64,000 nucleotides of DNA, taken from Lethocerus indicus (taxonomy: Eukaryota; Arthropoda; Insecta; Hemiptera; Belostomatidae). Positions 7,013-54,254 of the stretch are shown here, piece by piece (position 1 is the first letter of the stretch; every line of letters begins with the position of its first letter). The stretch spans positions 1,736,001 to 1,800,000 of the forward strand of contig JACDQD010000004.1 of assembly GCA_019843655.1 (NCBI GenBank), given 5' to 3'. Position numbers and translations under genes: made by a program. The notes below the pieces were generated by a model, which searched no databases, was not told the origin of the DNA, and was given only the letters and a program-made list of their open reading frames with translations.

Positions 7013-7047
7013 CTAATATTATGCTTATTTCTTTGTTTCAGGTAAGT
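7013..7047 (+). other. Recursive splice site (ratchet point 1)
   Basis: A 3' splice site and a 5' splice site are fused with no exon between them. A CTAAT branch-point-like element lies at 7013-7017, with its candidate A 25 nt before the AG. A T-rich tract with no internal AG follows, then CAG at 7039-7041 joined directly to GTAAGT at 7042-7047. This is the established architecture of recursive splice sites: the upstream part of a long intron is spliced to this AG, which regenerates a 5' splice site for the next step. The match to consensus is seen directly; use in vivo is inferred. A candidate RS-exon donor follows at 7104. A chance juxtaposition is possible for one site but unlikely given two more of the same strand and form. 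Confidence 0.8.
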
Positions 7048-7103
7048 TCTATTTTGGAAACTCCAGGTCTCGTGTGGTGTAAACGTCAACTCTGTATGTA
7101 TAT
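7042..7103 (+). other. Candidate RS-exon after ratchet point 1
   Basis: The 62 nt between the ratchet AG and a strong downstream donor (GTAAGT at 7104-7109) could be recognised by exon definition before the ratchet donor takes over. This is the mechanism described for recursive sites in flies and vertebrates. Reading frame 1 is open through the segment, while frames 2 and 3 meet stops, frame 2 at once in the TAA of GTAAG. Inclusion would add 62 nt and shift the host reading frame. Only the splice-site sequences are seen; exon definition is inferred. Confidence 0.45.
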
Positions 7104-10100
7104 GTAAGTTTAATTAATTGTGATTAAATTGAAATTTTAATAGCCGCGGTTAATTATCAATTCGCGGTATTATCCAACCGCTAATAATGTACGGTAAACA
7201 TGTTATGTAATGTTTTACATTCCGATCAATTTTTCAATTCTTCGATATCCTGTCCGCCTCAGTTGATCATCTGGAAGTTACGCGAGGTAAGAGGGTCGTA
7301 TCTCTTATCAAATTAGATGGGGGGAATAATGTCTGTTGTTGATAACAGTGTTTCCGAAATCGAACCGCGAATAACCAGGAAATACGTTGAGTAACAGAGA
7401 GGGGAAAGCGTCGATTTATGCGGTAGAATTTTTGTCGATTTTCGATTTTTACAAGTTGGAGGTCGTGGGACCGAATTGGTGACGTGTAGCGAGCGGTGTA
7501 TTCGGAGGAACCTCGCGCTTTTGCCAGGAATCCTTCGGCATTCCAAGACCGACGCCAAGATTCCCGCCGCCCGCCATTCGGTTGCCGACGCAAAACTTTG
7601 ATCGGGGTATCAAAGTGACGGGACTCAAATAGACGTTCGGAAATATTCGAAAAGTGGACGTCTTGAGGGAGGCAATTTGTATTTGACGGCGGCTATAGGT
7701 TCTTTACAATCTGAATGGTAGACTTTACTGGTTATATTTATTTGATGAGCTAAGCCTCAGCCTTAACGCGTTGAGGCGTACTGCATTTATAAACGTAGCG
7801 AGGGTAATTAAATATCGAACGGGCCAAGGAGACTTTTGTTTTGTAATCGGGTCATTCTGGCCGGCCGCACTGTAATATTAGAACTGAAGTAATGCACGCC
7901 CTTAAATTGTATTCGTTGCGTCACGATTTTTTATTTTTTCTTAAATCCGAATACAGAACTTGTTCTACCCCTGTCTATCCTTTATTATACACAGCGTAAA
8001 ATATGGGAGGTTCTGTATAGGGAAAACAACTGGAGCAGCCCAACTGCAGCGGGGTGTAGTTTGTATGTAATAAGTTCGAGTATTTGTGCGGATGTCCGCC
8101 AGGGTTCTGAATACCATTTTCCATCCTGTTTTGTCCTTTGCTTTCGTCCATTTTCGCGTCTATACAGTAATGCATCCTGCCAGCACTTGTAACCAGTTCA
8201 GATATTTTCTTATTGCGCTCGTTTCGTCCTACTTAGTATTAGCGGAAAGACAACTGGCAATAATTTCTAGCGGAACTAAAAGCATAGAAAATTAATAAAC
8301 AAGATTCGCTCATTATAATTTCCACTAGACTATTTTCGAATTATATAACTTGCAGTTAAGACTGATTATTCTCAATGGACCAATGTTATCTTGATGTTAA
8401 CAATTCAAAAAAGAAAATGTCGGGTCTGTTTATCGACTTAATTCCGTTGTTCAATATCGTTGGGAGGGGCTTGTTCTATTCCCCCGCCCCCTACCCGTGT
8501 TGGCAATGTTATTACAACAACTAGGCAACAACATTCGATCAGAGTCCCTCCGGAACTGCCGTCCCCCTGCAGCGTTTCACAGGAACAATAGCCATATGGG
8601 GCTGTAAAGAATCGTGGTGATTCGGCCGCCAACGGACGAAGCCTCTAATTGTTAATGCCGTTACCGGTTTATTATTGCGCTCAAACTCTAACCGAGCTAC
8701 CACTTAGCGATTGAACAGCCACGGTTATGATGCCTTCACCTGGATTATTAACACCGGCTCTATTATATACTTAGGTTAAACCTCGTTGTCTGTCCGCGAA
8801 TATATATGAAAAATGTATTCATATTTCGTTTTCACCGAATATAATAATGAGCCCACCGAATCTCACCGAAGGGTTTTTTCGAATAGATACGCGGACGTCA
8901 AGAGTCAAAATGGCGTTCAACTCTATTTAGTGGAAACACCGCAGTTTAAAACAAATTGGGGCCTCGGGCCTATTCATTTGGGGTATCTGAATTACCGAAA
9001 ATTTTAAATGGGGGCTCTTCAAATGACTCGGCGTTTCGTATATTTAATTACACACTTAACTCGTAAATACCCACCACCCTGTTTGCTGTTTTTTCATTAT
9101 ATTTATATTCAGATGCTTAAATACATTTTTTTAAAATGTGAACGGCTATAGTTCTTCTTGAATTCCCATAGATTTTGAACAGCTCTTGACGCCACCCACA
9201 ATTGGAAGGTTTTTTCGAATCCTGTTATTATTTTTTGTGCCCATTCAATGGCAGTTCTTAGCCTTTTATTCGTGTTATATATTCGTACCATATTTTAAAA
9301 GTGCTGACTGTGAATTTAATGAGAGTTATTGGAAATTGATCCCTTTTTTAGTGAATATTCTGTCATGTTTGATGGCCCCTGGCCCTGAGTTAATTGGCTG
9401 TTATCGATACGCGTTATCCCAAATATCGAATCGTAGAGGCCTCGAATTTTAAATCGTTTCCTGCGATTCGCCACTGCTCGTTACAGATAATAGTATAATG
9501 GCACTTTTATTGTGTATCAGGGATCTCTTGGGTAATTTAGAATTCGATTTATGTAATTATAAATACTAATTTTTTTATTTGCTACTATATGTTCAGCTTT
9601 ATTTTAGCCGGATGCTTTCATTAATCTCATGCAACCAGATCTCGGTTAGTTGTCTTCGCGCTTGCCAGCATCAGCGTCGTGGAAGATATTTTAAATGCCA
9701 CCTAGACCACATTTGTTGACACGGTTTTCTCTTTAAATTATATTTAGGATAAAGGCCAATTAGAAACGCGGTGTTTTTGGTTTGAATGACTAATAGGTGG
9801 GTTATTTAGGAGGAATTTGTAAATGAAACCCCCAAAAAAAAAATTGATGTTACCAATAATGAAAATATCCGCTCAGCTATAATTATAATAGTCCTGAAAT
9901 TCTTTCAATTACGAACTGTTGAAGAGTGGGATGCGAAATTTATGTTTTAGACAGACAACATAGTTTCTGTCAATTTTGAAATTTAACCCTCGAGTACTGG
10001 ACCAGCGCAAGTCGCGTTGAAAGATAAAAATCCCTCCGACCGAAGCTAGTTTCAGTTCTTCTTTTGGAGTTTGAAAATTCTTTCACGTAGCGGATTAACT

Positions 10101-13100
10101 GTTTAACTTATTGTTTACAGGGTGTCATGCATGTATCTGTCTCATTTTCCTCGCTCTAACGTACGAACTGGCCAATGCTAAACACCTGCATTTTTGTACC
10201 GAACAGGGTTTCATTTTGAGAGACAATATCTATTTGTGTATAAATGACACTATTGGAATTATGATTTAAAAAAGAAAAAACATTCCTATATTTCGGCCGC
10301 ATCCAACTTTTACACACGAAAGTTTCACAGTCCGATTTAAAAGCTCTTGTTCGCCCCCGATAGCGGTGGCGGGCATATGCATTTAAAAAGCAGGGTTTGG
10401 ATTGTTACCATGTATCAAGGATGTCCGATAGCGGCCAGGATATCCCACAATTCCGGCGGGCACGGCCCCTTTCTTATATTTCCCGTCGGTGTTTCCGTTT
10501 TGTGTTGCTGTTGCCCCCGGTTATCGGCCTGCAACATCGCTGGGGGGGGGGGGGTCTCATTAGACCCGGCTTTAAATTCCATTTCCCAACAAATTGGACC
10601 GATTGGATTCCGGTTCGCGGAGTTTTTTTATCGTTAAAAATTGCGGAGAAAGTATCATCGTAGCTGGACCGATTAATAAATAAAGTTACATAATTAAAGC
10701 AGTTCCGACCGATAGATATAATTTTCGCCCCAGGAATCCCGTGGGAAAGAGGAACATGAGCTCAGAACTACTTGCATCGTACAACGGTGATTAACTGGCT
10801 TGTTCAATTAACGTTTAGATCATTTCGAAGTGTAATTGATGAAAATTCGATCCCCCACGTTCGGAGGAATTGAGTGCGTTCGCGCTGCACCAATCTAACC
10901 GTTGGTTTACGCGGTCCCTTAACTACTCCATCATCCGTTTTCCTCATTTATATAAAAAAATTATTTCGACCGAACGAATGAATGGATTCACTCCGGTATT
11001 TCCATTAGTGAGATGATTTGACGACATGCATGAATCCTCGAACATTCTCATATTCGGCTTGGGGGAGAGCAAAAGGAATCGGGCTGACGTACGCGACATG
11101 GCGTCACTGGCCGACAATATTCCACGGTATCGCTAACACCGCCTATATAATCTTCGCGACTGAATATCGGGACACCGAAAATAAAGTGTCGATGAATGAA
11201 ACTTTTTTTCACGAGTACGGTTTCTCGAAAGAAAGTCCGAATTTATCTCTGTTCGAATTCCTCCCACCCACCCCACCCCCCCTCTCTCTCATTTTCTTTT
11301 TTTATATTTTCCACACCCCGTTTGCGATTTGAATGTGCCGTTTTATAATGTTATTCATGGAAAGTGTGAGCCGCGGGCACCTGGTGTTTTCTGGGGCCCG
11401 GTTTAATTTCCTGCACACGCTCGGCACTGTGGCTAACCGCACGGGGGGGGCAATGTCGCCCTCTGCTCTCAACATTAATATTGTCCACCTATTTATGTCC
11501 CTAATAAACGCCACTGTATATGTACGTATGCGGGAATAAATGCGCGTTAGCAGTATATTAATTAGCGTCAAACCGGGTATTGTAAAATTTATACCGGGGG
11601 TTTATAGAGTCGCAACGTTGTTCAGTTCGATTTATATTTCTCTTTCGGCCGATTGCGTTCACGGACGAGAACTATTTTATATGTATAACGTACAATGCAG
11701 CAATTCTGAATTATCAGCACCTATTTTTATCTTTCTGTGGCTTCACAAATAATCTCAAACGTGTAGTTACAATTTGGAATATCCATTCATCCAGTTTATA
11801 ATTGCGATCACTATAATAAATTTTGAATTTTCTGTATCCCATTCCGATTTCACAGATTGGCTGACAAACGAAGTAATTCTTTCATAATTCAAGTTTTTTG
11901 AAACAAAAATTTCTTGGCTGTAACAGTGTTACTTCTTTCTGTCGTTAGCTGCGATCCAATTAAAATTTGTTCGACTATTAGCTTCGATTTGGTGCTCTCA
12001 GTTCTAGAGAGGTATATCTGAAATGTTAGTAGAGCGCCGAGATCCGGTTCGAATACCAGTAATTCTCTCTCGCCTATAAATATCATTAGGCGGGCCTCTT
12101 TCCAACTGTAACGCCTACTGCTGAATCGAGTTGGACATTTTTTCGCTAATGGATTTGCGATGTTTCCACCCGACTCTTTTACCTACCGGCTGTAGAGTTT
12201 GTGCCCTTAACACCATTTGTTAGTCTGTTGCGTGCCCGTGTTAATTAGTATCCCGACAGCGGGGAATCAGCGTGGAATTTAATGGTGAGTCAGTTCGGGT
12301 TCTTCCCGAAAAAGGCTTCGGATTTCAACTCTACGCCCGCTTTATGTTTGGATTCAATGATTCGCATTATTAATTACCGTATTATCTGTCCGCTCCGCAT
12401 AGATGTTTGATGCTCAATTAGACCGGAATCGGCTTTTCACCGAAGGCCTGTTTGTGTTTCCTCAACATATTTCTAATAGTTTATATCGGCCTTCCCTTCT
12501 TTCCTAATAGCGCGATTTAGAATGGATACACTCTATAGAAAGGATCATTAAATTTTATTGTAGATTTCCCTTTTTCTCTTCACCCATTTAACTACCTTTT
12601 TTTGGTATTTGTAGACGCTACAATTAATTACGCGATTAGATCCGGAATTCCCTTCGTCGGCCCCAATTTATTTCATTCGCGGTCCATTTATTTCAACAAT
12701 GAAGGCGGACAGGGTGGATTAAGCGTAATGACCGTGTCGTGAGACCCCTGTCCAGTGCCGAGACTGATCCCCTAATTGCAGTTGCATCACATATTCAGTC
12801 CTCGGTGGATCCCCCTGTTACTTGTACTAGATTTATTTAACTGAATCTCCCGCTTTGGCTCTTTCTAAACTAATTCATTCCTATGGCAATTAATTTCTTG
12901 TATTTAATTATTAAAAATGTGTCGCCCGTTGATGACAAATTTTTTTTATAATACCCACTAATTGGCTTCAAGTGCTATCGCAAACTGGATAACATAAAAT
13001 GCATTGCATGAATTACAAAGGTTTTTTGAATTATGAATATTTGTCACTGCATTATTCTGTATTGCATTCGGTTTGTATGTATGATATGGGAATGTGAGAC

Positions 13101-15940: not shown

Positions 15941-16384
15941 TTTTTTTTTAAACTTTATTTATTGTACAATCAACTATGTGCCAGTTATAGGTACAGTTGA
16001 CTGAAAAAGAAAAGGGAAAAAAGAATGAAAAGAGGAAAGGGACCGAACGAGTGGATTTGGATGTGCAGAGAGGCGGGAATGGAATTTAAGGAAGCGTGAT
16101 TTTGCGACTTAGAAACATACCGGGGAGCATTAAGGATGGTACCGAGGACTTTTTGACTGGAATGTTTGGATGCGAGCGATGTTGGATTTCTTGGCGGAAC
16201 CCCATTGTTCTATTCCGTATGTCCGTGTCGGTTTTAGTATAGCTTTATATATTGTCAGTTTGTTGGCTATTGTAAGTTTTGATGTCCTTTTCAAAAGAGG
16301 TCTCAATAGTCCAAATTTACGATTTAGATCTGTTCTTTTCAGTCGGGTATGGCCTATTAGGTGTAGCGTTTTTAATAACAGTGA
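15941..16384 (-). mobile_element. Jockey-type non-LTR retrotransposon 3' end, decayed
   Basis: On the minus strand an open stretch of about 50 codons reads through motifs of the Jockey-clade ORF2 C-terminus. These include KRTDLNRKFGLLRPLL, LTIYKAILKPTRTYGIEQWG and SAKKSNIARIQTFQSK, equivalent to the usual TYGIQLWG and NI..iQrFQSK segments. A one-base shift follows, with LNAPRYVS in the next frame and then HPNPLVRSL back in the first. The element ends with two overlapping AATAAA signals (15954-15963) and a nine-base poly-A tail, seen as T9 at 15941-15949 on plus. This is a classic 5'-truncated, target-primed insertion, dead through frameshifts. It lies antisense to the inferred intron. The upstream boundary near 16384 is approximate, and the clade assignment rests on motif memory. 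Confidence 0.85.
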
Positions 16385-17820: not shown

Positions 17821-18003
17821 TTAGGGGTACCCAAAAATAATCAACATTTTGACTTTGGAATTCATTTTATTTTGCTAAAAGAGAAACTTCAATTTTTAAT
17901 CTCCAATATTATCAACAACTCTCTGCCAATTTTCCGGCAAATTTTCCTCCTCACAACCAAAATACATCTTATCAAATTGTTGATTACTTTTGGGTACACC
18001 TAA
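17821..18003 (-). mobile_element. Mariner-type deletion derivative (MITE-like), 183 bp
   Basis: The ends are imperfect inverted repeats of roughly 30 bp. The left end begins TTAGGGGTACCCAAAAATAA, and the right end read on minus begins TTAGGTGTACCCAAAAGTAA. Both are flanked by TA (17819-17820 and 18004-18005), the target duplication of the Tc1/mariner superfamily. On the minus strand a short frame ends LPENWQRVVDNIGD and a stop (rc of 17896-17898), which resembles the extreme C-terminus of mariner transposases. The element therefore seems to be an internal deletion that joined one terminal repeat to the last codons and 3' UTR. It encodes no usable transposase and could move only in trans. Superfamily is well supported by TIR and TA; the C-terminal match is from memory. 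Confidence 0.8.

Positions 18004-19585: not shown

Positions 19586-19588
<3 letters not shown>

Positions 19589-19644
<56 letters not shown>
19589..19644. repeat. (AT)28 microsatellite
   Basis: A pure 56-bp AT dinucleotide array lies between GACG-C and TTCATT. It is the cause of a spurious I-Y repeat frame on the minus strand. Confidence 0.97.

Positions 19645-21695: not shown

Positions 21696-21753
<58 letters not shown>
21696..21753. repeat. (AT)29 microsatellite
   Basis: A pure 58-bp AT array, the longest of the four in the window. It lies about 2 kb from the array at 19589. Confidence 0.97.
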
Positions 21754-28249: not shown

Positions 28250-28288
28250 AACAATTTTACTATTTGTTACTTTCTTTTTCAGGTAAGA
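28248..28288 (+). other. Recursive splice site (ratchet point 2)
   Basis: A branch-point-like TATAAC (28248-28253, candidate A 31 nt before the AG) or ACTAT (candidate A 20 nt before it) is followed by an AG-free T-rich tract. CAG at 28280-28282 is fused to GTAAGA at 28283-28288. The architecture is the same as at 7042, on the same strand, 21.2 kb further on. A GTAAGT at 28207 would make a 76-nt decoy intron with this AG, a size common in insects. Use as a ratchet is inferred from consensus and from company with the other two sites. Confidence 0.8.
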
Positions 28289-28366
28289 AACTGACATTTT
28301 GGTTCTTCCATTTTGATTATCAACGGAGAATTGAACCGGACGGGTTCTAGGAGCGCAAAGTATTCG
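28283..28366 (+). other. Candidate RS-exon after ratchet point 2
   Basis: The 84 nt from the ratchet AG to a GTATGT donor at 28367 would form the exon-definition partner. All three frames contain stops (TGA, TAA and TAG), so inclusion would introduce premature termination. This fits a segment meant to be skipped. The donor is good but not perfect. Function is inferred. Confidence 0.4.
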
Positions 28367-31300
28367 GTATGTTAATCTCATTTTCAATACCGTGGGAATA
28401 TTCAATATCTTATCTGGTCTTGGAACGATTAAGAAAATTGTGGGATGGGAAAATTAGTTGTTTTTATCGTGATAAGCAGGTTTAATGTTTCTTTTCGAGG
28501 CGTATACCTGCAACCCGGTGCAGGAGTATTTACCAGGTCAACATAAATACTATTAGCTCTTGTATTTAAACATAGTTGTTTTTATAAAAATATGATCCAG
28601 GGATGTAGTTTTATTCTGTTCTCACCATTCTGATCTCCACCTTTTATTTTAATTGAAAAACTGAAAGTGGAATTACGATAGAAATTAGTAATAACCACAG
28701 AGGATCTTCTTGCCTGATATAGTCTTATACTAGGCTATCTTCTTCGGTATCGAGTGGAAACAGAAAGAACGAATGAAAAATATAGCTCTTCTTGCGTTCT
28801 TATTAAGATTTGACCTGGTTAGCCTTAATGCAGTCAACTATAATTAACACGACCTGTAAACCAGGGTCAATTCCGTACATTATTTATTTATATTTTGGCC
28901 AATCAGCGGCGGATGTGTGTGGATTAATTGAAAATTCAACGCGTATAATTTTTTCCAGGAATTAAAAACTATTAATTATTCAATCTAAAATAGAAAGTGA
29001 AAACAAATTACCGTTGTGGGAAGAATGGTGCCAGTATATTGCCTGTTAAATCCGAGAATTAATGGAATATTATAGGAATGAGAGTTCGAATGAATAACAG
29101 TCCGGTTTATAGAAATGCATGCAGGATTGTGGACGGTTTCGTGATGTTGTTAGATAGGGCTGGAATTAGTGGGGGTGAACGACTGGTCTATTCGCACGCG
29201 GTGATCGCCCTTTCCCAGGCCGGCCATCGCGTTCCCATTGTCGGGTCGTTTGGCCGGCGGAGTCAAGGAACCCCGGGGAGTTTAAACCGACCGCCGGAGC
29301 ACGACTCCTAGGGTATAAACGGGACGAGCCTCAAACTAATCCCGCTCCGAACACGCCCGACCCCCGGGTCGATTTGCATCCTGCGAACCGTTATTCGACT
29401 TCTTCCAGGTGTTGTTCCCCCACTAGTGGTAACCGTCGCGTAACGAACTGAAGTATAAATATGACGACCGGGTCAAATCCTGTTAATTACTCGCCTAATC
29501 CCGAGATATTACAGTATTCCGCTCTCGGCGGAAGCGGGGCGATACGGACTGCCGTTTCCGTTAGTCGCGGAGCCGCTGTTCGGCGGCGGAAACTCGACAC
29601 CGACCGTGAAGAAATAAGTGAAATTCGTTGAAAAAGATCATTCTTATAAATCGAGTTTAAGACCGAAGAAAATAGTGTATTTGAAATTTCATGGTTAATT
29701 CCCGGATTTCACTATCTCGAGACTGAACAAATACAGTCAAAATCCTGTCCAGAAGCATAAAACATAAACAGCAGTCGTGCCAGGGCGTAAGGTCAGATGC
29801 CAAATAGAGGGCAATGGATTAGTGATTCATTCTTTAGCTAATGATCTGGGCGCTTAGCTATAGCGTTTCAACTAATCGTGTTGTTTTCACCCAGACGTTC
29901 GTATGCTCGGTCTGTGACCCACAACGCTTTTAACCCCTCTCGAGTGCATTGACCTGGCACAAACGACGTCTTTGTATCACCTTATAAGTTCGTGTTTATT
30001 CCTTCAAGTTTAATTATCATCCGTGTGTCGAGCGAGAAGAGCCGCCATCGATCCGTTAACTTGGACCTCACGAATTTCCGGCCAACTGCAATGACAATTC
30101 CGTCTGAATTGTCAAAGAAGACAGCCGCAGTGAATAATAGTGTTAACACTTCGGCGAAATCCTGTGCGAATATTGTGCTCTATTTAAAATTCAAACGATC
30201 GCTTCCTGTACGCCCGCCGGAAGTCAAGTTACATGTCGGCGTTTAAAAATTAACTTCGTTTGACCGGCCCAGTAATTTTCCCGCCGGTAATCAACTAATT
30301 GAATAAAACCCCTACTGCCGGTTGGAAATTGTACCTGGGATTTAGTTTTACCGTTTTGTGAAACCCTGAAAGTGAAGTCTCTAGTTTCTAACGATAGAAT
30401 TACTGTAATTGCCTTAAATCCTGTTCTTTTGTCATCCCCGCTTTGTCGCCGGAAGGAAGGGCCCAGAGGATGGCTTCGGCATTGTAATTTTCATTCCTAC
30501 TTTGCACACTTACTTGGATCGGTAACAAAGTTAGAATGACAATTTACTTTTGTTTGTTGGCTATAATAGAAACGTTTCGGAAGTTCTCGCGCTGTCTTAA
30601 AGTAATTTTATTTAAATTGTTCGCCTCATCGGAACCAAAGTGTAAGTTGCTCGCGTGCTGGAATATCTAATACTAACAAACGGGTGAATTTATAGGATAC
30701 TTTTTGAGTTAATAGAGCGGTTAAAGACAGATAATGTTCAGATTAGATTACGGCCTAACTGGAAGGACTGTCGTCTCTTCGAAGAGGGCAGACATGTGGC
30801 AGGCACTATTGGTTTCTATAGTTAATTCATTGTAAGTTCCCAAACGTACCCAGCCGAAATTTGAAATAAACATTTTCAAGGAATAATTAAATAATATGAT
30901 ATTAAAATTCAATACCCTTTTTCGAGAATTCTATTCTAAGATAGGAAAATGGGGAGAAAGTTTATCACTTCAGTTTACATTTTCCATCCATTTCCAGTTA
31001 TTACACGTCGGATTCCTGATAATCGTTTCACATAAATGGGGGTTAATTTCACTCTTGGTTTTGTAAACTTAAAACGGAGTCGGGGAAGCGGAAAAATATT
31101 TTCCGCCGGATTATTCGTCAAATCCCGGATTGTCGGTGTTTGCAGCGTCCCTCTGTTTAAGAAAAATGACCGACAGCAATGCCGGGAATCCAATTTTAAA
31201 GGGTTCGGGCGTCGCATACTGATTCGGCCGCCATCGCGCCCCCAGGAATGATAACGTTTTTAATAATTCATGCAACGGAGGGATACGGGTAATAAAGTCA

Positions 31301-41880: not shown

Positions 41881-41900
41881 CTCTATCATGCATGATAGAG
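41881..41900. repeat. Perfect 20-bp palindrome
   Basis: CTCTATCATGCATGATAGAG reads identically on both strands with no spacer. It may be a dimeric binding site or a chance event. A perfect 20-mer is not expected by chance in 64 kb. Confidence 0.9.
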
Positions 41901-42807: not shown

Positions 42808-42845
42808 GGGATGGGATGGGATGGGATGGGGTGGGGTTGGGGAGG
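42808..42845 (+). promoter_or_regulatory. (GGGAT)n G-quadruplex tract
   Basis: Four tandem GGGAT units run into GGGG-T-GGGG-TT-GGGG. The tract has more than four G runs with one- to two-base loops on the plus strand. In the inferred transcript this would be an RNA G-quadruplex inside the intron. The unit resembles telomere-like repeats only superficially. Confidence 0.7.
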
Positions 42846-45800
42846 TGCTCTGAAGGCAATTTGGACTGGGGTTCGGACTCGGTTAATAATGGTGGGATGA
42901 GGTGCCCTACCTCTCTAGCTCGCGACCGGCCGACTGTCCCCCATCCTTTAGAATACGACCGAAAACAATGAAGTTCGTCCTTTATTTGGCCCCGTGTATT
43001 GAGTACCCTTTCACCCTCCACGCTCCCTTCGCATCTCAAACCCTTCCGAACTGAATTTAATGAGACGTTTATCTGACTCTGAACTTTCACCCTACTGTTG
43101 TTTCGGGGGCAGTAGGATAACAGTTAATTATTATTGTTTTGATCCGAACTGAAGCCTCGCGAAGTTATTTTTATATTTCAGCGAAATTTCTGTTTTTTTT
43201 TTCTCAACTTCCCCATCCCCAGCCGGACACAGTAGTAAGTCACCAACTTGGATACAGGTGTAAACTATTCAAGAAGGTCACGTTACCATTTACCTGTCAG
43301 GGCAATATTTTCCCCTACGGATTCGATAAAATGGTATTGTTCTGGAGCGAAGCTAAAAATGAGCCCAGTCAAGGTTGGAGGCCCAGAAGTTTTTATCCTG
43401 GGCTACTATTGCCAACTGGTCTAAAAACGGTAGCAACATGCATTCTTGCAACATACCAGTGATTATAATGTCGGAATATTCATTTTGTTTGTTTGTGTTG
43501 AAGTTGTTCTATTATAACTCTATTCGAAGCGTCCGGATTCGTTTGGCTGAACTCTAAACCGCGTTTTTAATCATTTTTTCCCACTTTTTTTTTTTAATTA
43601 GCCGCATCAAAGTTTCATCCCAGTATTCACAACGTTCGATCTTACACTAGTACATTTTAACAGAAAATGGATGATCGATAGTCGACGCTCATAAAAAGCG
43701 TTGCCGTCGTATATCTGAGATTCTGAGGGTGTATAAATTACAAATGAAACTCTGTCAGCGGTGATATTGTAAAAGTTATAATAAAGTAGAGCGGCGGCGG
43801 TACGGAATCCGGAGGAGTAGGCGGCAGTTAGGTTCTGCGCTGGGCTCCATTTTAATAACTTGGCCGGACGGGAATTTCAATATATGTCAAAAGACGCATC
43901 GCTGGGCGGTGTCACAGGACCAGCGTTGTTAAAACAACGAGCAGGGCCGATATGAGACTGATGGAGATGAGAGGGAAATGCTCGCGAAATGTTGCCTCCC
44001 GTGAGCAGAGTCCTCTACAACTCCAACTTCCATAATTTATTCGGCGGGCCCGAACTTTGATCTGGTAGATTTGAGTTATTTAAATGTTGGGTCTGATTTA
44101 TCGCCGGTTCGGAGTCGAAGGTGCGAATTACGGAATTTGAATTTCCAACCCCCTCCCCCGCCTTACCTTCGTCAACCCCCCCATAAGACCAAGTTGGATA
44201 GAAAGTAGAAGTTTGTAATCTGCGCGTGTAATCTGTAGAAAACTGTAATATCGAATATTTTGTACCCAATGCTCCCTATATAAGGTTCTACACATAACTC
44301 AGAGAAATTAATCTTGTCGTGTAATTATTTATCAAATACATTTACTGTATACAAAGTTTTACAAAACCCATTTTCATTGTGAAATTAACGAGACATAATA
44401 ATCAAATCTTCGACTATGTAACATTTAGATTTATATAGGTTCTGTATTCTGTATTCTAACACAGCTGGGGTTCTATAATATTTTATAAATTTATGTAATT
44501 ACTCCCCTGATGACAGTATACCTACCTAGGATTTTTGGTCCTAAAACCCCCTCCACGTGAACGCTACAATTTCCCTTTAAATGACGTTGGCAAAGGACTA
44601 AATATTTCACAATCTTAATTAATTTTTTGATACTTTGATTATAGATTTCATCGTAATTCGGAGTACAATTATGATTTTCATTTGTGAAATAACTTTGCGC
44701 TTCACGAAGGGAACAAATACAAAACTGTATTCAATATCGCCGGCCGTAGCATCATAGATTCGGTTGTCGCATGGGTGGGAAAAGTACTGGGTCGCCCCGG
44801 AGTCAAAGTCCTCCTAGAGCTGGCATTGTTCCAGATCTTGCACCAGCGCCGGTTGCACAACAGTCGTATTCGGTACCGAAGTGGAAGAAGTTGGGGCGGA
44901 TCAATTTTCTATCGTAAATCACAAATTAACGGATGATATAGGAATCGGATACGGTAATTTGGACGAGAGAGTTTGCGCGCAGTTTTAAAAGTTTTTTTGT
45001 AATGTGCGAAAAGTAAAATCGGGCTCGGGTTGCCTCATTTAATATTTTTCTACTAAATGTTTTTAGAACACCTAAATTCTGTCCAGAGTCTACATTAATA
45101 ATAATTAATTAATAGTATTGTTTTTTTAATTTTGAAAGCATTCTGAGGCCTATATTTATTTATATAACACGGTAATAGGTAGGGTAGGGGCCTGCCGGTG
45201 TAATTTGTTCGGGCCCCCCCCTGTTCGGTGTATATAGAAATAAACGGGCGTGTGTGGGTTCCACCCTCGGTTTATTTTTGTGTCCTCTAGTTTTCTCTGG
45301 GTATTCCTTCTGGCGAGTCCTTAAAGTATTCTGAGCAGATGTGGGCCGATGTGCGGGGTCAGTTTCATCGTCAGCTGTCCCGGCCATCGCCTCCACAAGT
45401 CCCCCATCAAATTTCTTCTTCCCCCTCCATCCCTCATCAATTTACATTTTTTTCCTTCGATATTCCCCGGGCCACCCCTTCGGTAATCGGCACATTACTG
45501 TTTTGACCCGTTTCTGTGACTGGTAGCTGGTTCTGAGGCAATTTTCATCAATTCGCCTCATTTTCTTATAGCCCCTTTCCAATTTACGGTTAGGCTTCGC
45601 GGTGATGTTACTCGCCGTTAATTTCTTCTTCCTCCAGACCTTGTCGATCCGTTATTCCTTTAATAGGTAGGATCCGGTCATTTACTTGGTCGTTTCTTTT
45701 GATTACTGGGACAGTGTTGATGGTGTAGAATTAAATGTTTGTTTAATATCATTTGTACGAAGCAAAAATGCTTTTATACATTTATCGGAAGAGCCTTTTT

Positions 45801-47936
45801 AATGTATCATTAATAGGCTTGTATCATAAACATGAAAGCCATTTAAAAGGCGCTTGGCTTATATTTGTCCTTGGTATTTTACAGCATCTTGAAATTGTGT
45901 TAATCTACAAAATCACAACTTGTGCTAATATTAGGAGTAATATACTGTCGTAATTTTACTAGGACTGATGTGAAACAGTACTATTCAATTCATTCTAGAT
46001 ACATGAACTAGTGTGCATTGCTCAAAGGTGAGTTTGGAGGATTTTCCCTTAATCGGTTGTGGGGAATTATCAATATTTTCAACGTTATAAATTCTATCAC
46101 GGAAAATAATAGGTCAAATGACGGGAGAGACCTTTGATAAGAGGAAGAAAGGATTAATTTCATAAAAAAATAGCAAAAAAACCAGGAGCGATTCTTCAGT
46201 TTGAGGTCTTACAGAAGTTTAATAATTCTCGTGAACAAAAAAAAAATAGCCGCTATAACTGGACAACTGTTGAAAGAAGTACTTTAATCCTAAAGAAGAT
46301 TACGGTCCCGCGCAAAAAAAGGTGCCCGACTTTGAGGCAATATTTTCATAACTTGATATCTTTATGGAGTTTAAAAGTAATTGGAAATTTCTGAAGATGG
46401 CGGTTAACGTTAAGTTTTAATGTGGAGCTCCACAGACTGGCAAATGTTTTTACCCGTTTCGATCGAATAAAATTCAAAATGTTCCGCTTCAAGAGTGTAA
46501 TGTTGTTTTCGTATTCCCAAGTGGACTTCAGCACTAATCATTAGTGCATTATTAAAGTTTAGATTCCTATTCGACTTCTTTAAGTGTGAAATTTGTTTAC
46601 CTCGCAGATGGGCTAAATTCCACCGCACTTCTTCTTTAAACAACTTCCTCCGTATGAAAGTTCTTCACTTTTATGGGGAATGAATAAATGTATATACTTG
46701 ATACACGGTTGTAATATGAATTGTATTCAGTATTCTATATCAAGAACATAAATACTGCTACTGTGAGTTTATATATTTCGAAGAATGCACGATGTTGAAA
46801 ATTACTAATTTGGTACACGTTTAGTATCATTTCGTATGTAAATTATCAAAGAAAACATAGTTATATGTTAATAATCATTCCACACATTTTTGCATACACT
46901 CGAGATAAATCTCGTAATATATTCGCGCATTTGAGGATTCCGATTTATTCCTCAAATTTTCGCTATAATATACCCCCATTCTTTGTGCAATAAAAAGGCG
47001 TTAAGAAAATAAATCAAAGGCTCTGTTGAAAAATAAAACAGATTTTCGCGGCTTAGGGTCTAAGAGGGGGTCGGGGCCGCCATAACAGAATTTGGCCGCG
47101 GCCGGAATATAAACTCGGAAAGATCAATGAGTATATCTCTTCGGCTTCAGCTCGCACGGATACTCGTTCTCGCTCTCGGCCCTGGGCGTTATTATTGTAC
47201 GCGTCCGTATTAATTTTCGGTTCGCCGTGTACACGATAATTCGAGTCAATGAGGCAGAAGTTGGAAGCCAAGGTCGGTTGGCCGGGGGTGAATTAGCACC
47301 TCGGGGGATGCGGGTCGGCGGAGATTTGTGGGATCCGCCGAGATTTATGTCGCTCGGGCCGCGCGTATCCACCCGATCCTCCGCCGCCGCCGCCGCCGCC
47401 GTATTGATTTGTTTGATATTTGGCGCATTGCAACAGCACACTTAAATATCGCCTAATGGACTGGGTGTGCTCTCGGGTCCGGCCGTGGACGCGTCATCCT
47501 CCGTGGAATCGTTGTACTCGATTCCCGGCGTTCTCTACTTCCCGTCATGTGATAATATTCCGTCTGAATGATAAGCATTCGACGTTAAATTTCCTCATGA
47601 CCTGCGAGGCATCGACTTCGGAATTCTACCCCCGGAATTTCCTTTATAAGGTAGCCGAAGTGGGTCTTTTAAAATACGGGGCTTTTTAAAGTCCGGTTGA
47701 ACCGGCGAGCAGGTGAGATTGTAGGTCAGAAATGCGTGTGGATATTATGCATCCGTGTTTCGGGACCGGTTGTTTTATTTCCGTATATGTTTTTCGAGTA
47801 TTCTGCTCGATCGGTACACCAGCAATTGGTTCGATACTTTACGGATATGCTCCGTAAGTTTAGAGGAATTGAAGGTTAAATAAAAAAAGCCTTTCATTAA
47901 GTCGACTTTGATCATTCCAGTTTATTCGAAATCAGA
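42846..47936. other. Unique non-coding DNA
   Basis: No gene was recognised. A (CCG)7 run lies at 47381-47401 inside a GC-rich patch (47050-47410). Two overlapping minus-strand frames at 46346-46643 are AT-rich and unassigned. A donor-like GTGAGT occurs near 46028 with no matching acceptor. Confidence 0.5.
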
Positions 47937-48093
47937 TGCTAATCACTAAGATTTCTATTCTATATCCCTTTGACACATCACAACATATTCTGTAATTAAA
48001 ATTGTTGCAGTTTCTATATCCTTTCTGATATTGTGATATAATTTTTTCACGAACTTCACTGTTTTCCTTGAACAATGTGAATTAAATACTGTT
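47937..48093 (+). repeat. Left copy of ~155-bp direct repeat
   Basis: It begins TGCTAATCACTAAGATTTCT and ends near GAATTAAATACTGTT. It is closely similar, with a few substitutions and small indels, to 48338-48489 in the same orientation. The two copies bracket a minisatellite, giving an LTR-like or duplicated-unit layout. No TG...CA ends, primer-binding site or target duplication was seen, so an LTR element is not claimed. Confidence 0.85.
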
Positions 48094-48109
48094 GTACATT
48101 ATTGTTTAG

Positions 48110-48330
48110 GCCCAATAATGCGGTTTTGGGGACCCCAAATCGGCCCAATAATGGGGTTTTCAGGCGTAAAATCGATCAGAAATGCGTGTTTTAGGCCCAA
48201 AAATACTGTTATTAGGTGCAAAATCGGCCCAGTAAAGTGGTTTTCAGACACAAAATTGGCCCAAAAATGCTGTTTTTAGGCCCAAAATCGACACAAAAAT
48301 GCGGTTTTTAGGCGTAAAATCGACCAGAAA
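48110..48330 (+). repeat. 32-bp minisatellite, about 7 diverged copies
   Basis: Tandem units of 31 to 33 bp begin GGCCCAAAAATGC, continue with GGTTTTTAGGC and end AAAATC. The third unit is partial, and copies differ by several bases. Each unit has an internal near-dyad (AAAAATGC-GTTTTT). The array exactly fills the gap between the two direct repeats. Confidence 0.88.
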
Positions 48331-48337
48331 GCAGTGA

Positions 48338-48489
48338 TGCTAATCACTGAGATTTCTATTCTATATCCCCTTGACACATCACAACATATTCTTCAATTAA
48401 AATTGTTGCAGTTTCTATAATTATTATAATTTTTTCACGAACTTCCCTGTTTTCTGTGAATATTTGTTCAATGTGAATTAAATACTGTT
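48338..48489 (+). repeat. Right copy of ~155-bp direct repeat
   Basis: It starts TGCTAATCACTGAGATTTCT and ends GAATTAAATACTGTT. Relative to the left copy it lacks a segment near TATCCTTTCTGATATTG and has a small insertion near GAATATTTGTTC. This amount of divergence indicates that the duplication is not recent. Confidence 0.85.
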
Positions 48490-48891
48490 ATAAAACAAAA
48501 CGGGACTAGGGTGTAACAGCACGGTGTCGTATTGAGGGAGTCCCTCTCGGGCTTCTTGGTAATTTCCTGGCCCCGGCCGCGATGGATGCGATGTATTTAT
48601 AGGGCGTGGACTGCCGGCTGGCATCCTGTCCGAGACGCCACGTGGTCGCGTGTCGCCCCCCCCGTGTCTCCTAAGCCGGGTTCTCCTGTTATTTATCCCC
48701 GGCGTGGACGTCCGAGCATCTGCGGTCCGGGCGAGAGAGAGAGAGCCGCCGGCCACCTGGCCTACGACCCCGAGCATCTGCCCGTCCAACCACTTCCTTA
48801 CCCTATCCCACCCAGCCACCAGGAGCCACTTGGTGCCCGTCCAGTCGTCATCATTCGCAGCCGGGTCAGATGGCACAAGACAAACAGAGTA
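48490..48891. other. GC-rich non-coding DNA between repeats
   Basis: This is a CpG-rich stretch with a short GAGAGA run near 48734. Frames of up to 148 codons on both strands overlap each other and have no recognisable domain. Confidence 0.45.
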
Positions 48892-49738
48892 CAGTGGGTG
48901 ATCGGGTTAACGGACAGTTCGGACAGCGAACAAATCGGACAACCAACACTTTCAGGAAAGATTTTTGTGTTCGGATAAAACTAATTCTGACGAAAACCTC
49001 TCGGCTCCACCAGTCCTCAATTCGTCCCGAAGCTATTCGTCTTATTGAAAAGGCGTGGTCAGAAATCACTCGACGACAGTTGGTTTCTGCCCGGCCAAAG
49101 CTGTGTCCATCCCTCGTTCGAGGAGACGGAGGTGATCTGGGTGACACCCCTGAAATTATGGATTAAATTGTAACAACCGCGAGAGATCTGGAATTGGAGG
49201 TGAACGAGGATGACATTCAGAGAATGGAACATGAAGGTGACTTGACGGCAGAAGAACTCCAAGAGATCTTGAATTAACAACACCGAGAAACTCGGCGAAA
49301 TGTGTTTCCTTCTGAAAAAGTGGAAGACGAAAGAGGAGCAATGCCGACATCTCTGCCATTAAAGATCTTTCGAAGAAGTGGGAGGATGTCGGAGCAACGG
49401 TCTTAAAATGGCACCCAAACCGAGCTGATGTCAATAGGGTTGCTGATCTCTACAACGACATTGCTATCGATCATTTCCTGAAAGTCCTGAAGGATAGAGA
49501 AAAAACAATCGACATTGGACATGTTCTTTAACGCCCAAAGAAAGAAAAAGGACTGGTTAATAAACTTACTAAGAAATTATACTTGTACATGACATCTTTT
49601 TAAATTTAATTTTTAGGATCTCCAGAACGAATTATGTAATCGAATTCCCATTAACATATATGGTAAATCGGTGATCGGTTAACGAACAATTCGGATAGCG
49701 ACCATAATCTTGGAACGTATTATGTTCGTTAACCACTG
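48892..49738 (+). mobile_element. pogo/Tigger-like DNA transposon, internally deleted
   Basis: This 847-bp element is flanked by TA (48890-48891 and 49739-49740). The left end starts CAGTGGGTGATCGGGTTAAC. The right end read on minus starts CAGTGGTTAACGAACATAAT. The shared CAGTGG plus GTTAACG(A/G)ACA and the TA duplication fit the pogo/Tigger branch of Tc1/mariner. Inside is a decayed C-terminal part of a Tigger-type transposase; the DNA-binding and most of the DDE domain are absent. At 49671-49710 a second copy of the left-end sequence lies in direct orientation, so the right end is complex. The element cannot encode its own movement. Confidence 0.85.
49008..49531 (+). pseudogene. Tigger-type transposase C-terminal remnant
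   Basis: In the frame of 49023, IRPEAIRLIEKAWSEIT corresponds to the I..aW..i segment that follows the DDE domain in Tigger proteins. After a stop at 49164-49166 the same frame gives LELEVNEDDIQRMEHEGDLT and then AEELQEI, matching the acidic E-L-T-EEL-EL block. A frame change near 49340 leads to KKWEDVGATVLKW, HPNRADVNRVADLYNDIAID and HFLKVLKDREKTIDIGHVL with a stop at 49529. The HP...R...L.ND....HF...L..R pattern is the usual Tigger C-terminus. With one stop and one frameshift it is a clear pseudogene. No catalytic residues remain. Confidence 0.85.
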
Positions 49739-49793
49739 TACAATATACCTCCCGCTTAATGTTCTCCGAGACGCATTTGTTGTTCACGATGTA

Positions 49794-50045
49794 TTGGGTT
49801 GACAACTAAGTAATTGCGGAATTCACCGACAAGTGGCGTATTTTCATATTTGCAGAATTTTTTTTTATTCATTCCTATTTGAGTCTGGGCTATATATTTT
49901 TTTGGTGACTGCCGTATTCAGATTTCAAATAAAGTTATGTTGTTTGTTGTGCACCCCTCGATTGAGCTTCGTGTGTTATTCCGATGTTTCGTCGGTATTC
50001 AGAATGGTATCCAAATTGCAAAAAAGGACAAACCTTCAACTTTAA
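49794..50045 (+). mobile_element. Mariner (irritans-like) 5' end, truncated
   Basis: Immediately after TA (49792-49793) comes TTGGGTTGACAACTAAGTAA followed by TTGCGG. This is the terminal repeat of a widespread irritans-type mariner group. A partner repeat in inverse orientation was not found downstream, so only the left end and some 5' UTR remain. The right limit is a guess; an ATG near 50008 does not continue into recognisable transposase. It starts about 55 bp after the pogo/Tigger-like element. Confidence 0.65.
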
Positions 50046-51647
50046 ACAAGAAAGGAAAATATTCGGTTATCCCCGGGAACAACTAGCAATTGCTGCAATT
50101 TTAAATAATAACGGCATAATTTTATAAATCATAAAACTAAGATATTCGAAACCTCCACGATTTAATATTAAATTAATAAATTACCCCGGCATTAAATAAG
50201 GCCCCATCGAAAATTCGAAGGAGGAATGCTTGAACCTCCTCCGATGGAGTAAGTCTGTTATTGCATTCCCTTCGGTCGGAAGAGTTATTCAAAAATAAAT
50301 TTCCAGACTTGCACGTTATAAATACTGAGCAGGGGGGAAAAAATTTCGCGTCTAAAAAGTTCAATGGTTTCGGAAATCCTTGCATTCTTGTTCCCTCGAA
50401 ATTCCTTTCGGCGGTCACTCGCAGTTTTAATATTTTTTTTTTAATTCTCTCTTCTTCAGTTAATCTCCTGAGTTCTGTTTCGTGCAACTTATTCCCCGGC
50501 CTTCCACGGCCGTCCTTAATTATCTTGTTATCGGGGTGATTACTGGGAAGCTCTTTTATCGAGGCGTGAATCGCCAAAAAGGAGCCGGCCGGGCGTGTTC
50601 TAATTACGATTACATTTCATTGCGTGACCCAAATCCAATTGTTGCCTGCGAACTAATTCCGAGGGCGATATACAATTCCGCGCTTCTAATTAAAACTAAT
50701 TAAATTTCTCCTGTCCATTCATTTCTCAGGAAAATATCTCTTTATTTTTTAAATAAGTTTTCTTAGTTGGTTTCCCGGCCGTCCACAATCTCCTCCGACA
50801 CGAGTGAATTAAGTTTTCCCCCGTTTCGAGGTTTTTCCCGTCGCCAGCAGATAACTCGATGGTTTATCCTGAAACGAGGAAAGTTACTCATAACGGAGAT
50901 TTGCGGGGAGAAACAAATGTCAGGAATGAGACAGTGATGACGAGGAAATGAATTGGTTGTGACACCTAAATCGTAGAGTCGACAGGTAGTATGAGTGCAA
51001 CATTTTCACACACGCCTGCCAGCAGGACCAGTGAGTTGATTAAATAAAAATGAGAATATAACGAATACAATTTATATATTTATTGACTCCGAAGATTGGC
51101 ATATTTGATGGGCACTCCCTTATCGACTGACGGCATGCACTCGACTACCTATCGGAAATCCGAGCGCTCTGAATACTTAAAGATTGGAAAAGTTCTCAAT
51201 TCATACCGTAAATCAGAATGGACCTGTGATTAAAAAAAATACTAGAGCACATTCCGTGCGTCATTCCTCCTTTATCTCAATTAACTGTATTACTCTCCTA
51301 TCATAGTATGCAGACCAATTATTTTTCCTTCTCCTCCAAAACATCGTCCCCAATGTCATCCGTCCGCATCTCCACATGCGGGTTATCCGACCCGCGAAGC
51401 TGGCAACATTCCGACAATCGGCCGTGTTCACTATGAAACTATAAATTGTTGTTAATTGAATTGTTTATTCTTAATCATTGTCACACTTCGGTCTGGGGTG
51501 TACAGGTTTGTTTGTGCTGAAAAATTGTGCTTGTGTAGCGGAATGTGTAAAGTCTTACGCTATTATATATTATTTTTGCACAGCAAAATTTACAGCAGTT
51601 TTTATTATTATTATCTAGAAGTTTATAATTCTCGGTATTTCTGTCTG

Positions 51648-51652
<5 letters not shown>
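50046..51652. other. Non-coding DNA, no gene seen
   Basis: Unique sequence. A 134-codon minus frame (50173-50577) reads as hydrophilic and lysine-rich but has no recognised family and no splice context. No transposon end was found. Confidence 0.45.

Positions 51653-51701
<49 letters not shown>
51653..51701. repeat. (AT)24 microsatellite
   Basis: A pure 49-bp AT array, preceded by a short TTA-rich stretch. Confidence 0.97.
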
Positions 51702-51706
<5 letters not shown>

Positions 51707-54148
51707 TCAATTCAGTAAATTTAGGGACGGTCTTCCAAATGGGCTTGGGCCAAATTACCAGAAACTCTCTCATGCACCGTTCGTCTCGACATCATTTGTC
51801 ATTTCTCACAAAAACGCCGACCGGGGTCCCCTCCTTGGATAACCGTTTGTGCAGTCTCCCCCATAGTCGTCTTCCCGATCTTATCGTGGAGGGAGTGGTA
51901 GCTCGGTGAAAAACTCCCTAACCATCTCGTCGGAAATTACATTTCCCCCAATTGCACCGTCAACGCATAAACGCGCGTTATCCGTCAGTCGCGTACAAGT
52001 TTTGAAATCAATGCTCGTTGCATTGTGGTTTCTGATTTTGAAGTATATGGATTGGGGAGGAATAGTTTGGAATCGTAAAATAACGTCGCTTCTGCGCTTG
52101 TTATTTGTTAGCTTATTGTGAACGAGGGTGATTACTTCATTGATTAATCAGTGAATGACACTGAACTGTTAAAACATTTGTATATTTTTTTTTAATTTTA
52201 AGAAGTTCGGATTAAATTTTTTAAAACCAAGAATGAGTTCAGAAATACAAAGCTGATCTATTATATTCCATTGACTACCGGATTGGGAAGACTTCCAAAG
52301 GAATGTGACCTCGAGTGACGGTTTCAAAAAATAGCAACGTACCGGCTAGAATTATCTTCGAATAATTGGCAGCTATATTAAATTCTTAATTCCCTTTCGT
52401 TTGAAACAAAACAGGGTAATAAATAATTTTCTAGTCCTATTCGAAAGCAGATGGGACCGCGAATAAAACAATCCGCTCTCTAGACATTTTCCGATAATTC
52501 TTACTTTGGAAGTCTGGGGCGGCGCCTATGGATTTTCGATTGGCCCCCTAATGAAAATCGTGATTCAGTACTTCCACCTCAGATTTAATTTAACAGTCTT
52601 ACAAATCTCCTTTTATTAGGGGAGGGGGGCCACGGTGAAGGCGAATAAATTCCTTTTTTATCGGGTTCCCCCCCCCCGTCCCCTCTCGCTACCGTTCTCC
52701 TTTTTGTTTTTAATTTTCTCCAAAGCCCGGGAGGGGCGCGGGCCCGTTTCGGGAATGAGCCCTGAGCGGCGCGGGCTTCCCGACCCCGAAAAGGGATTCC
52801 CGTTTAAATCTCTCGGGCGGGCTAATAAATCAGGCTTATTACTTGGCCATTGCCGACAGCGCTCGGCAGGGTAATCAGGGTCCCGGTTGTATCACTTTTA
52901 TTAGGTTAGCCCTTATTTTTACCGGGTCAGGTCCCGGCCTGCCTCACGTATATAAATTGGAGCGCCGGCGGAAAAGTTAAAGTTGAAAATCGGGAACAAA
53001 ATCTTCCTCCCCTCACCCCCCCCCTGGGTCTATTCCCGGCGGGAGTTGTAGCAGGAAATTTTAGACATTGAAAGACTGATCATATTAAAAGGCCATTACA
53101 ATCTTTTTTGGGGGGCCGAGAATGAATAATGCACTCAAATTGAAATAAATTATTCGGGGATTAGTAAAAAAAAACGCCTCCATTACGTTAAAACCTGGTG
53201 AATAAGTTCGGCCGTACGTTTTGTTATCCGATGATTGATTCCGACCGAAGTGTGTTCATCCCGGTTAATGAACGAGTCGAACGGAATTTTGTTTTTGCTA
53301 CAGGAGAATTTGGTTTGTTTTCCATTTGCGCAGTTTTTACTTTGCCGAGTTTTAGCATACAAACCGGGCGCTGTCCTCCATCCAAGTAAAAATATCAGAT
53401 TAAAAGTTTAGCGAAATTTTCGCCGGCTCCCCCCCCACCCCTACTAATACAAATCCATACCTCGGCAACTTTTAGCCCAAAATGTACCCCGCTTCGACCA
53501 ATCCTCTTTGCTGTTGTGCCGGGTAATGGCTGTTGTTTTTATTCCGGCTTTTTATGCCGTTAAAGGAACTTTCTTATCTGAATTTTAGATTTCTTATCGT
53601 CCCCTTTTGGACGAGTTTTACATATATTTGCTAACTCATTGCACTTACAGATTATGATTAGATTCTGTGGTAAAGGTTGACGCTTTGATTGATGCTTTGT
53701 CATCAGTTGTAAGTCGTTCTGAGAATATATTTTGGTTAGGACGCATTTCCGGTTCGCATTTAATATAGCCGGTGGATCGTCCGTTTCATGAACGGGGAAT
53801 GCGGTTTTGCAATGTAAATTATTTCAACCGAGTCAGTTGTTCCATTGATTGACTCGATGAGTCAATATTGTCCGTATTGTGGTAGCGTTATTTGGATAAC
53901 CAAGAATGTTTCACTCGTTATGGCATGTGCGTCATCTGTTTTTCATAACTTTTTCCTTAGTGAGTCACGGCCACTATCTTTACTAACATTGCAAATTGTA
54001 GAAATTTAAACTTGGTTTTAAATATATTTTATTCCGAATAATGGGTATTTTTCGTATTTCTGGACCCTCAAATTAGTTATTTATTGTGCTCACAAATCGA
54101 AATTCGAAATAAGCGGTTTTCACATGATATTGATAACTCGATTAAAGT
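51702..54148. other. Unique non-coding DNA before ratchet point 3
   Basis: No gene was recognised. A GC-rich part lies at 52620-53050 with several C runs. A perfect 8-bp inverted repeat (ATTGACTC-GAT-GAGTCAAT, 53848-53866) contains two TGACTC half-sites. The stretch becomes AT-rich towards the splice site. Confidence 0.5.
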
Positions 54149-54183
54149 CTAACTTTTGTTTTTGTTTTTTCTTTCAGGTAAGT
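54149..54183 (+). other. Recursive splice site (ratchet point 3)
   Basis: A CTAAC branch-point-like element at 54149-54153, with its candidate A 25 nt before the AG (the same distance as at ratchet point 1), is followed by an almost pure T tract. CAG at 54175-54177 is fused to GTAAGT at 54178-54183. It has the strongest pyrimidine tract of the three. It lies 25.9 kb after ratchet point 2. Same strand and same form make a chance origin unlikely. In vivo use is inferred. Confidence 0.83.
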
Positions 54184-54254
54184 CATTTGGCAGTTCTTGT
54201 GTGAGATATCCAGCATTGAACATGGCTTGAATTTAAAATAATCTCTACCTCGAG
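54178..54254 (+). other. Candidate RS-exon after ratchet point 3
   Basis: The 77 nt up to a moderate donor, GAG-GTTAGT at 54255, could act as an RS-exon. Every frame has a stop (TGA in frames 1 and 3, TAA in frame 2). The downstream donor is weaker than the ratchet donor, which would favour removal of the segment. Function is inferred. Confidence 0.38.

What the first reader, a model, noticed from the sequence alone, without database searches (positions are those of the whole stretch)
7013..54254. Three-step recursive splicing relay inside an apparent giant intron
Seen: exactly three CAGGTAAG words in the window, all on plus, each preceded by an AG-free pyrimidine tract and a branch-point-like element, at 7042, 28283 and 54178. 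Known: juxtaposed AG|GT sites with strong Y-tracts act as ratchet points in very long introns of flies and vertebrates. Inferred: a plus-strand gene is spliced through here in steps of at least 21.2 and 25.9 kb, with no exon in between. By chance about one CAGGTAAG per strand is expected in 64 kb, and few of those would have a Y-tract.
Basis: partly seen in the sequence, partly recalled or inferred. Interest (0 to 1): 0.9.

Follow-up and report, generated by a model that had tools for sequence, protein, structure and literature searches.

The report
Ratchet-point relay in insect giant intron
A very long stretch of insect DNA carries a series of back-to-back splice signals, all on the same strand, of the kind that lets cells remove a giant intron in several bites; the mechanism is known from flies, and the sequence evidence that this insect uses it is strong, although no RNA could be examined.

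Summary
The three CAG|GTAAG junctions lie at 7042, 28283 and 54178 on plus. The bare word is unremarkable (3 seen, 1.25 expected). The complete juxtaposed acceptor plus donor is not: scores 20.1, 20.4 and 23.3, against 10.8 for the next plus-strand site and 11.9 for the best minus-strand site.

The relay runs past the window. In the 269 kb fetched there are five such sites on plus and none on minus; the two extra ones are at +103,989 and +117,217 in window coordinates. Each window site is followed 62-84 nt later by a second, weaker donor, as in Drosophila RS-exons.

A strict ratchet pattern occurs 350 times in this genome, against 15 for the pattern read backwards. Among the 100 places listed, all 20 neighbour pairs within 100 kb are on one strand.

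Best reading: intronic ratchet points of an unidentified plus-strand gene beyond PGAP3, in an insect whose nearest named PGAP3 relatives are Hemiptera. The mechanism is known (flies), and motif excess is published for bee, beetle and mosquito. Missing: RNA data, conservation, host exons and gene name.

The parts
7013..7041 (+). Acceptor half of ratchet point 1: CTAAT branch-like element, pyrimidine tract and CAG
   Evidence: sequence; acceptor score 10.7; branch CTAAT at -29; AG-free 61 nt
7042..7047 (+). Donor half of ratchet point 1, GTAAGT
   Evidence: combined 20.1; 9-nt donor score 13.2
7042..7103 (+). Putative cryptic RS-exon 1, 62 nt, closed by the weaker donor tat|GTAAGT at 7104 (alternative donor gag|GTAAGA at 7287)
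   Evidence: scores 7.2 and 10.5; length not a multiple of 3; one frame without stop
28250..28282 (+). Acceptor half of ratchet point 2: pyrimidine tract and CAG; no branch consensus found with the motif set used
   Evidence: (acceptor 12.7; AG-free 69 nt; no branch motif hit)
28283..28288 (+). Donor half of ratchet point 2, GTAAGA
   Evidence: combined 20.4; 9-nt donor score 11.5
28283..28366 (+). Putative cryptic RS-exon 2, 84 nt, closed by tcg|GTATGT at 28367; stops in all three frames
   Evidence: (6.1)
54149..54177 (+). Acceptor half of ratchet point 3: CTAAC branch element, T-rich tract and CAG
   Evidence: (acceptor 13.9; CTAAC at -29; AG-free 28 nt)
54178..54183 (+). Donor half of ratchet point 3, GTAAGT
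   Evidence: combined 23.3, best junction of the window; 13.2
54178..54254 (+). Putative cryptic RS-exon 3, 77 nt, closed by gag|GTTAGT at 54255; stops in all three frames
   Evidence: (7.4)

Best explanation
The sites are intronic ratchet points (recursive splice sites) of one plus-strand gene that starts downstream of PGAP3 (whose coding part ends at about window -20.1 kb) and whose giant intron spans the window. Inferred order of events: the upstream exon is spliced to the acceptor at 7042. That joins it to GTAAGT, which is a fresh donor at the ligation junction. The regenerated donor is spliced to 28283, then to 54178, then to +103,989 and +117,217, and finally to the next true exon further on. 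Each acceptor is probably recognised by exon definition through the weaker donor downstream (62-84 nt at the window sites), which closes a cryptic RS-exon. The stronger ratchet donor then wins, so nothing of the RS-exon stays in the mRNA. Shown here: the signals, their strand coherence, the RS-exon donors, the genome-wide excess. Inferred: transcription, the order of steps, and usage.
For: Extreme combined acceptor plus donor scores. Five sites scoring 15 or more on plus and none on minus in 269 kb; simulations of 264 kb give per strand 0.75-1.06 sites of 15 or more, 0.07-0.11 of 17.7 or more (5 seen on plus) and 0.007-0.02 of 20.0 or more (4 seen). A PWM-free rule gives 5 to 0. RS-exon donors weaker than the ratchet donor at all three window sites (13.2/11.5/13.2 against 7.2/6.1/7.4). 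In 30 other genomic TTTYAGGTAAGT places, acceptor strength correlates with the strength of a donor 20-120 nt downstream that did not enter the score (Spearman 0.65, P 1e-4). Genome-wide 350 strict sites against 15 for the reversed pattern. 20 of 20 neighbour pairs within 100 kb on the same strand, among the 100 of 350 places listed. T-over-A skew from PGAP3 on. No Pfam domain on plus in 4600-54595, with the positive control found. No similarity between the flanks of the sites.
Against: No RNA evidence of any kind. No host exon was found on either side, so the intron and its length are inferred, and the gene has no name. Site 2 lacks a branch consensus. A donor of 6-7 or more within 20-110 nt occurs by chance in 7-15% of places, so each RS-exon alone is weak evidence, and site 4's RS-exon donor is poor (4.6). 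The splice-site PWM was recalled, not trained on this genome. Conservation could not be tested (no relatives held). Sites 2 and 5 do not match the strict genome-wide pattern.
Confidence: 0.88

Rival explanations
1. The sites are 3' splice sites of ordinary alternative (cassette or poison) exons of 62-84 nt whose first bases happen to read GTAAG; the juxtaposed donor is little used and the exons are included in some mRNAs (expressed RS-exons, as in Ubx or many mammalian genes).
For: A downstream donor follows each window site; exon 1 has one frame without stop and exon 2 is 84 nt, a multiple of three.
Against: The ratchet donor outscores the exon donor at all three window sites. Exons 2 and 3 have stops in all frames, and two of three lengths are not multiples of three. 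Five ordinary exons in a row starting with GTRAG would be an odd coincidence.
Confidence: 0.07
2. Chance: T-rich insect DNA throws up an AG|GTAAG with a pyrimidine tract now and then, and these three are unused.
For: CAGGTAAG alone is expected 1.25 times, and 16 of 100 shuffles have three or more.
Against: Simulated and mirrored sequence almost never reaches these scores. Five plus against zero minus. 350 against 15 genome-wide.
Confidence: 0.02
3. The junctions mark copies of a transposable or other repeat that carries an AG|GTAAG splice cassette.
For: The strict motif is numerous genome-wide (350).
Against: The 600-nt surroundings of the five sites (and of a sixth weak one) match nothing but themselves in the 269 kb at E 0.01; the 40 nt upstream of 30 other places, printed, look unrelated by eye.
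Confidence: 0.01
4. The sites are genuine recursive sites but belong to two or more transcripts or introns (for example nested promoters, or exons without a Pfam domain), so the 'relay' is not one intron. This overlaps with the best explanation rather than excluding it.
For: Host exons are unidentified; exons without a Pfam domain and untranslated exons would be missed; plus-strand acceptor-donor pairs with high scores exist, e.g. 45638-46027, though without an open frame.
Against: No coding domain between the window sites and T-over-A skew throughout.
Confidence: 0.15

Closest known systems
Drosophila intronic ratchet points / recursive sites (Joseph et al. 2021, PMC8605326, part 1 of 6 of the text read; Pai et al. 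2018, PMC6110457, passages and first third of Results read)
   Different: Different insect lineage (closest named PGAP3 relatives are Hemiptera); use not shown; in the first 55 of the 100 listed genomic sites G stands at -7 in 40, and whether flies share that was not checked.
RP-site enrichment in large introns of other invertebrates (Shepard et al. 2009, PMC2773006, passages read)
   Same: Computational excess of RP motifs on the intron strand: fly 21.7-fold, bee 4.0, beetle 8.0, sea urchin 8.2, mosquito given as much more than 10.
   Different: That survey used database introns over 50 kb and the opposite strand as control; its invertebrates were sea urchin, fruit fly, mosquito, bee and beetle, with no hemipteran. 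Added here: RS-exon donors and runs of neighbouring same-strand sites.
Mammalian recursive splicing with RS-exons (Sibley et al. 2015 and others; known here only as cited in the papers read)
   Same: Donor regenerated at an exon start, competition with the RS-exon's own donor.
   Different: In mammals most RS-exons are thought expressed and nine fully suppressed sites were noted definitively (introduction of PMC8605326); the window sites look like suppressed, fly-type ones.

Membership tests
Drosophila-type intronic ratchet point | Juxtaposed strong 3' and 5' splice sites around AG|GT | tested here: met
   five sites on plus, none on minus in 269 kb
Drosophila-type intronic ratchet point | Pyrimidine tract and AG-free zone upstream | tested here: met
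   14, 15, 15, 15 and 12 of 17 pyrimidines at the five sites; AG-free 61/69/28 nt at the window sites
Drosophila-type intronic ratchet point | Branch site upstream | tested here: inconclusive
   CTAAY at -29 at sites 1 and 3; none at site 2 with the motif set used
Drosophila-type intronic ratchet point | Cryptic RS-exon closed by a donor weaker than the ratchet donor | tested here: met
   3 of 3 window sites at 62, 84 and 77 nt; outside the window site 5 at 38 nt (6.8), while site 4's is poor (4.6)
Drosophila-type intronic ratchet point | Lies in a very long intron of a gene on the same strand | tested here: inconclusive
Drosophila-type intronic ratchet point | Conservation of the AG|GT core between related species | not testable with these tools
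   The genome has no held relatives
Drosophila-type intronic ratchet point | Splicing intermediates: exon-to-site junction reads, lariats, saw-tooth density | not testable with these tools
Expressed RS-exon / cassette exon | Exon present in mature mRNA, usually frame-preserving | tested here: inconclusive
   Lengths 62, 84, 77; stops in all frames in two of three; expression not testable

The most novel reading that the evidence does not exclude
Recursive splicing is a genome-wide routine in this hemipteroid insect, with several hundred ratchet points, and its sites share a composite signal tighter than a generic acceptor plus donor, TGTTTCAG|GTRAGT with G at -7. That would suggest that ratchet acceptors are read as a class of their own rather than as ordinary 3' splice sites that happen to abut a donor.
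Probability: 0.2. Interest if true: 0.65.

Novelty: new member of a known kind. Interest (0 to 1): 0.5.

Why it matters
Recursive splicing is experimentally established in flies and, for a small number of fully suppressed intronic sites, in mammals; for other insects I found only one motif survey in the papers seen. A clear relay in a hemipteroid genome, with RS-exon donors and same-strand runs elsewhere in the genome, argues that the fly-type mechanism is old in insects. It also suggests that ratchet points can be called from raw sequence alone, and it gives a list of testable places in a newly sampled lineage.

Tried and rejected
Rejected: chance; repeat copies; Rfam elements at gathering score or tRNAs in the window (0 hits); coding exons with a Pfam domain between the sites. 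The idea that the giant intron is the last intron of PGAP3 was tested and dropped: its last coding exon (ending in a stop) lies at C4:1,715,824-1,715,875, just 88 nt past the previous one. A sixth candidate at +64,860 (score 13.2) is within the range of the controls (up to 14.3) and of the minus strand (14.5) and is not counted. The bare word TTTYAGGTAAGT is a poor detector: 426 against 295 for its mirror, and 14 of 30 fetched places have a strong acceptor. My first guess that the CpG-rich genome was hymenopteran was wrong: PGAP3's nearest named relatives are Hemiptera.

Led nowhere: naming the host gene. The Pfam scan of plus-strand flanks (L010, L016 second half, L017-L020, L052) found nothing, and whole-genome family searches (PF00076, PF00046, PF05593) did not complete. 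Not scanned for domains: the minus strand, window 1-4599 and 54596-64000, L009, L011-L015 and the first half of L016. The check whether G at -7 is general to acceptors of this genome did not complete. Paper searches were badly set (they matched papers without 'recursive splicing') and say nothing.

Full report
Observation. CAGGTAAG occurs three times, all on plus, at 7039, 28280 and 54175; 1.25 are expected for both strands and 16 of 100 shuffles hold three or more, so the word itself proves nothing. What sets the sites apart is the upstream half. With an approximate fly-like PWM recalled from memory (22-nt acceptor plus 6-nt donor) they score 20.1, 20.4 and 23.3. The next plus-strand junction scores 10.8, the best minus-strand one 11.9, and the best of the reversed and complement sequences 13.7 and 14.3. 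Of 100 simulated 64-kb sequences at each of Markov orders 1, 3 and 4, none, none and one held a site of 20.06 or more.

The source genome. The window is contig C4:1,736,001-1,800,000 of a 426.8-Mb assembly of 209 contigs without held relatives. I fetched 200 kb around it and 5 kb more. Scanning 264 kb gave two further plus-strand sites, at 1,839,989 (score 21.8) and 1,853,217 (17.7). In 269 kb there are five plus sites of 15 or more and none on minus. Simulations of the 264-kb region, 150 each at orders 2 and 5, give per strand 0.75 and 1.06 sites of 15 or more, 0.07 and 0.11 of 17.7 or more, and 0.007 and 0.02 of 20.0 or more. A rule without a PWM (YAG|GTRAG, at least 12 of 17 pyrimidines, no AG just upstream) gives the same five on plus, and none on minus or in the reversed and complement controls; at 11 of 17 it gives 6, 0, 0 and 1. 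The spacings are 21.2, 25.9, 49.8 and 13.2 kb.

RS-exons. In Drosophila an intronic ratchet point needs a short cryptic exon closed by a second donor, generally weaker than the ratchet donor (PMC8605326, part 1 of 6 read). The three window sites have such donors after 62, 84 and 77 nt, scoring 7.2, 6.1 and 7.4 against 13.2, 11.5 and 13.2 for the ratchet donors. Donors that good occur by chance within 20-110 nt in about 7-15% of places, so the evidence is moderate per site. Outside the window, site 5 has one at 38 nt (6.8) and site 4 only a poor one (4.6). As an independent check, in 30 other genomic TTTYAGGTAAGT places (the first 30 of 426, all on C1) the acceptor score correlates with the best donor 20-120 nt downstream, which does not enter the score (Spearman 0.65, P 1e-4). 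Splitting at acceptor score 7.5, a cut set after the values had been seen, gives 14 strong and 16 weak places with medians 8.2 and 4.4 (one-sided P 0.003).

Genome-wide. YYYYYYNYTTYAGGTRAGT occurs 182 + 168 = 350 times, against 8 + 7 = 15 for the same pattern read backwards. Among the first 100 places, which are the ones listed, 20 consecutive pairs lie within 100 kb; all 20 are on the same strand. Within 200 kb it is 31 same and 4 opposite; within 500 kb, 35 and 14. This is what sites in shared long introns should do. Sites 1, 3 and 4 are among the 350; site 2 (GTAAGA) and site 5 fail the strict pattern.

Host gene. A PGAP3 homologue (Per1 family, PF04080) lies on plus; six pieces with similarity to PGAP3 proteins run from C4:1,713,018 to the stop codon near 1,715,875. 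The giant gene therefore begins after it, so the first step could be up to about 27 kb. From 1,716 kb on, T exceeds A on plus in 91% of 183 one-kb bins (mean skew -0.084), against +0.022 over 76 bins before 1,712 kb. This fits plus-strand transcription but is no proof. No Pfam domain was found on plus between the window sites or in the flanks scanned. The host gene was not identified; whole-genome family searches did not complete.

Organism. This rests on one protein. PGAP3's best hits are two unnamed sequences (62 and 59% identity); the next eight, all named, are Hemiptera, among them Lycorma (60% over 89% of the query), Clastoptera (56%) and Halyomorpha (55%). I therefore call it a hemipteroid insect; the species is unknown.

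Prior knowledge. Pai et al. [quoted passage not shown] Shepard et al. 2009 (PMC2773006, passages) found RP motifs in excess on the intron strand of bee (4.0), beetle (8.0), mosquito and sea urchin (8.2). A bee paper that mentions recursive splicing does so only to exclude it for one microexon (PMC8553928, passages). In the held library 'recursive splicing' together with 'Hemiptera' gives one paper, a piRNA review that I did not open; with 'Apis mellifera' six (listing, one searched for passages). Most subscription papers are not held. The finding is thus a member of a known kind in a lineage where these searches showed no report.

Verdict. The sequence case for a recursive-splicing relay is strong. 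What is missing is RNA, conservation and the name of the gene.

Noticed in passing
genome-wide, first 55 of the 100 places listed (C1 and C2): G at position -7 of the acceptor in 40 of 55 strict ratchet sites (TGTTTCAG|GTRAGT), an unusual break in the pyrimidine tract; whether ordinary acceptors of this genome share it could not be checked. Window sites have G, T and C there.
   Followed up: partly
C1:8.667-8.828 Mb (+), C1:10.110-10.183 Mb (-), C2:28.445-28.579 Mb (+), C3:10.534-10.879 Mb (+), C3:27.024-27.225 Mb (-): Other same-strand runs of three or more strict ratchet motifs, candidate relays in other giant introns.
   Followed up: partly
C4:1,636-1,690 kb (window -100 to -46 kb), L002-L006 and L021: Tandem cluster, on both strands, of Ala-rich proteins with the repeated motif DTPEVAAAKAAH, by recollection a cuticle-protein motif.
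   Followed up: no
C4:1,713,018-1,715,875 (+), L008: PGAP3 homologue, six exon pieces; marks the upstream limit of the giant gene.
   Followed up: yes
window, whole length: CpG observed/expected 1.23 and T over A on plus in every 8-kb bin.
   Followed up: partly
48196-48325: Minisatellite of about four 32-bp units; (AT)n or (TA)n runs at 415-460, 19589-19644, 21696-21753 and 51648-51701.
   Followed up: no
45638-46027: Plus-strand acceptor (13.0) and donor (12.3) 390 nt apart with no open frame; possible untranslated exon or chance.
   Followed up: no
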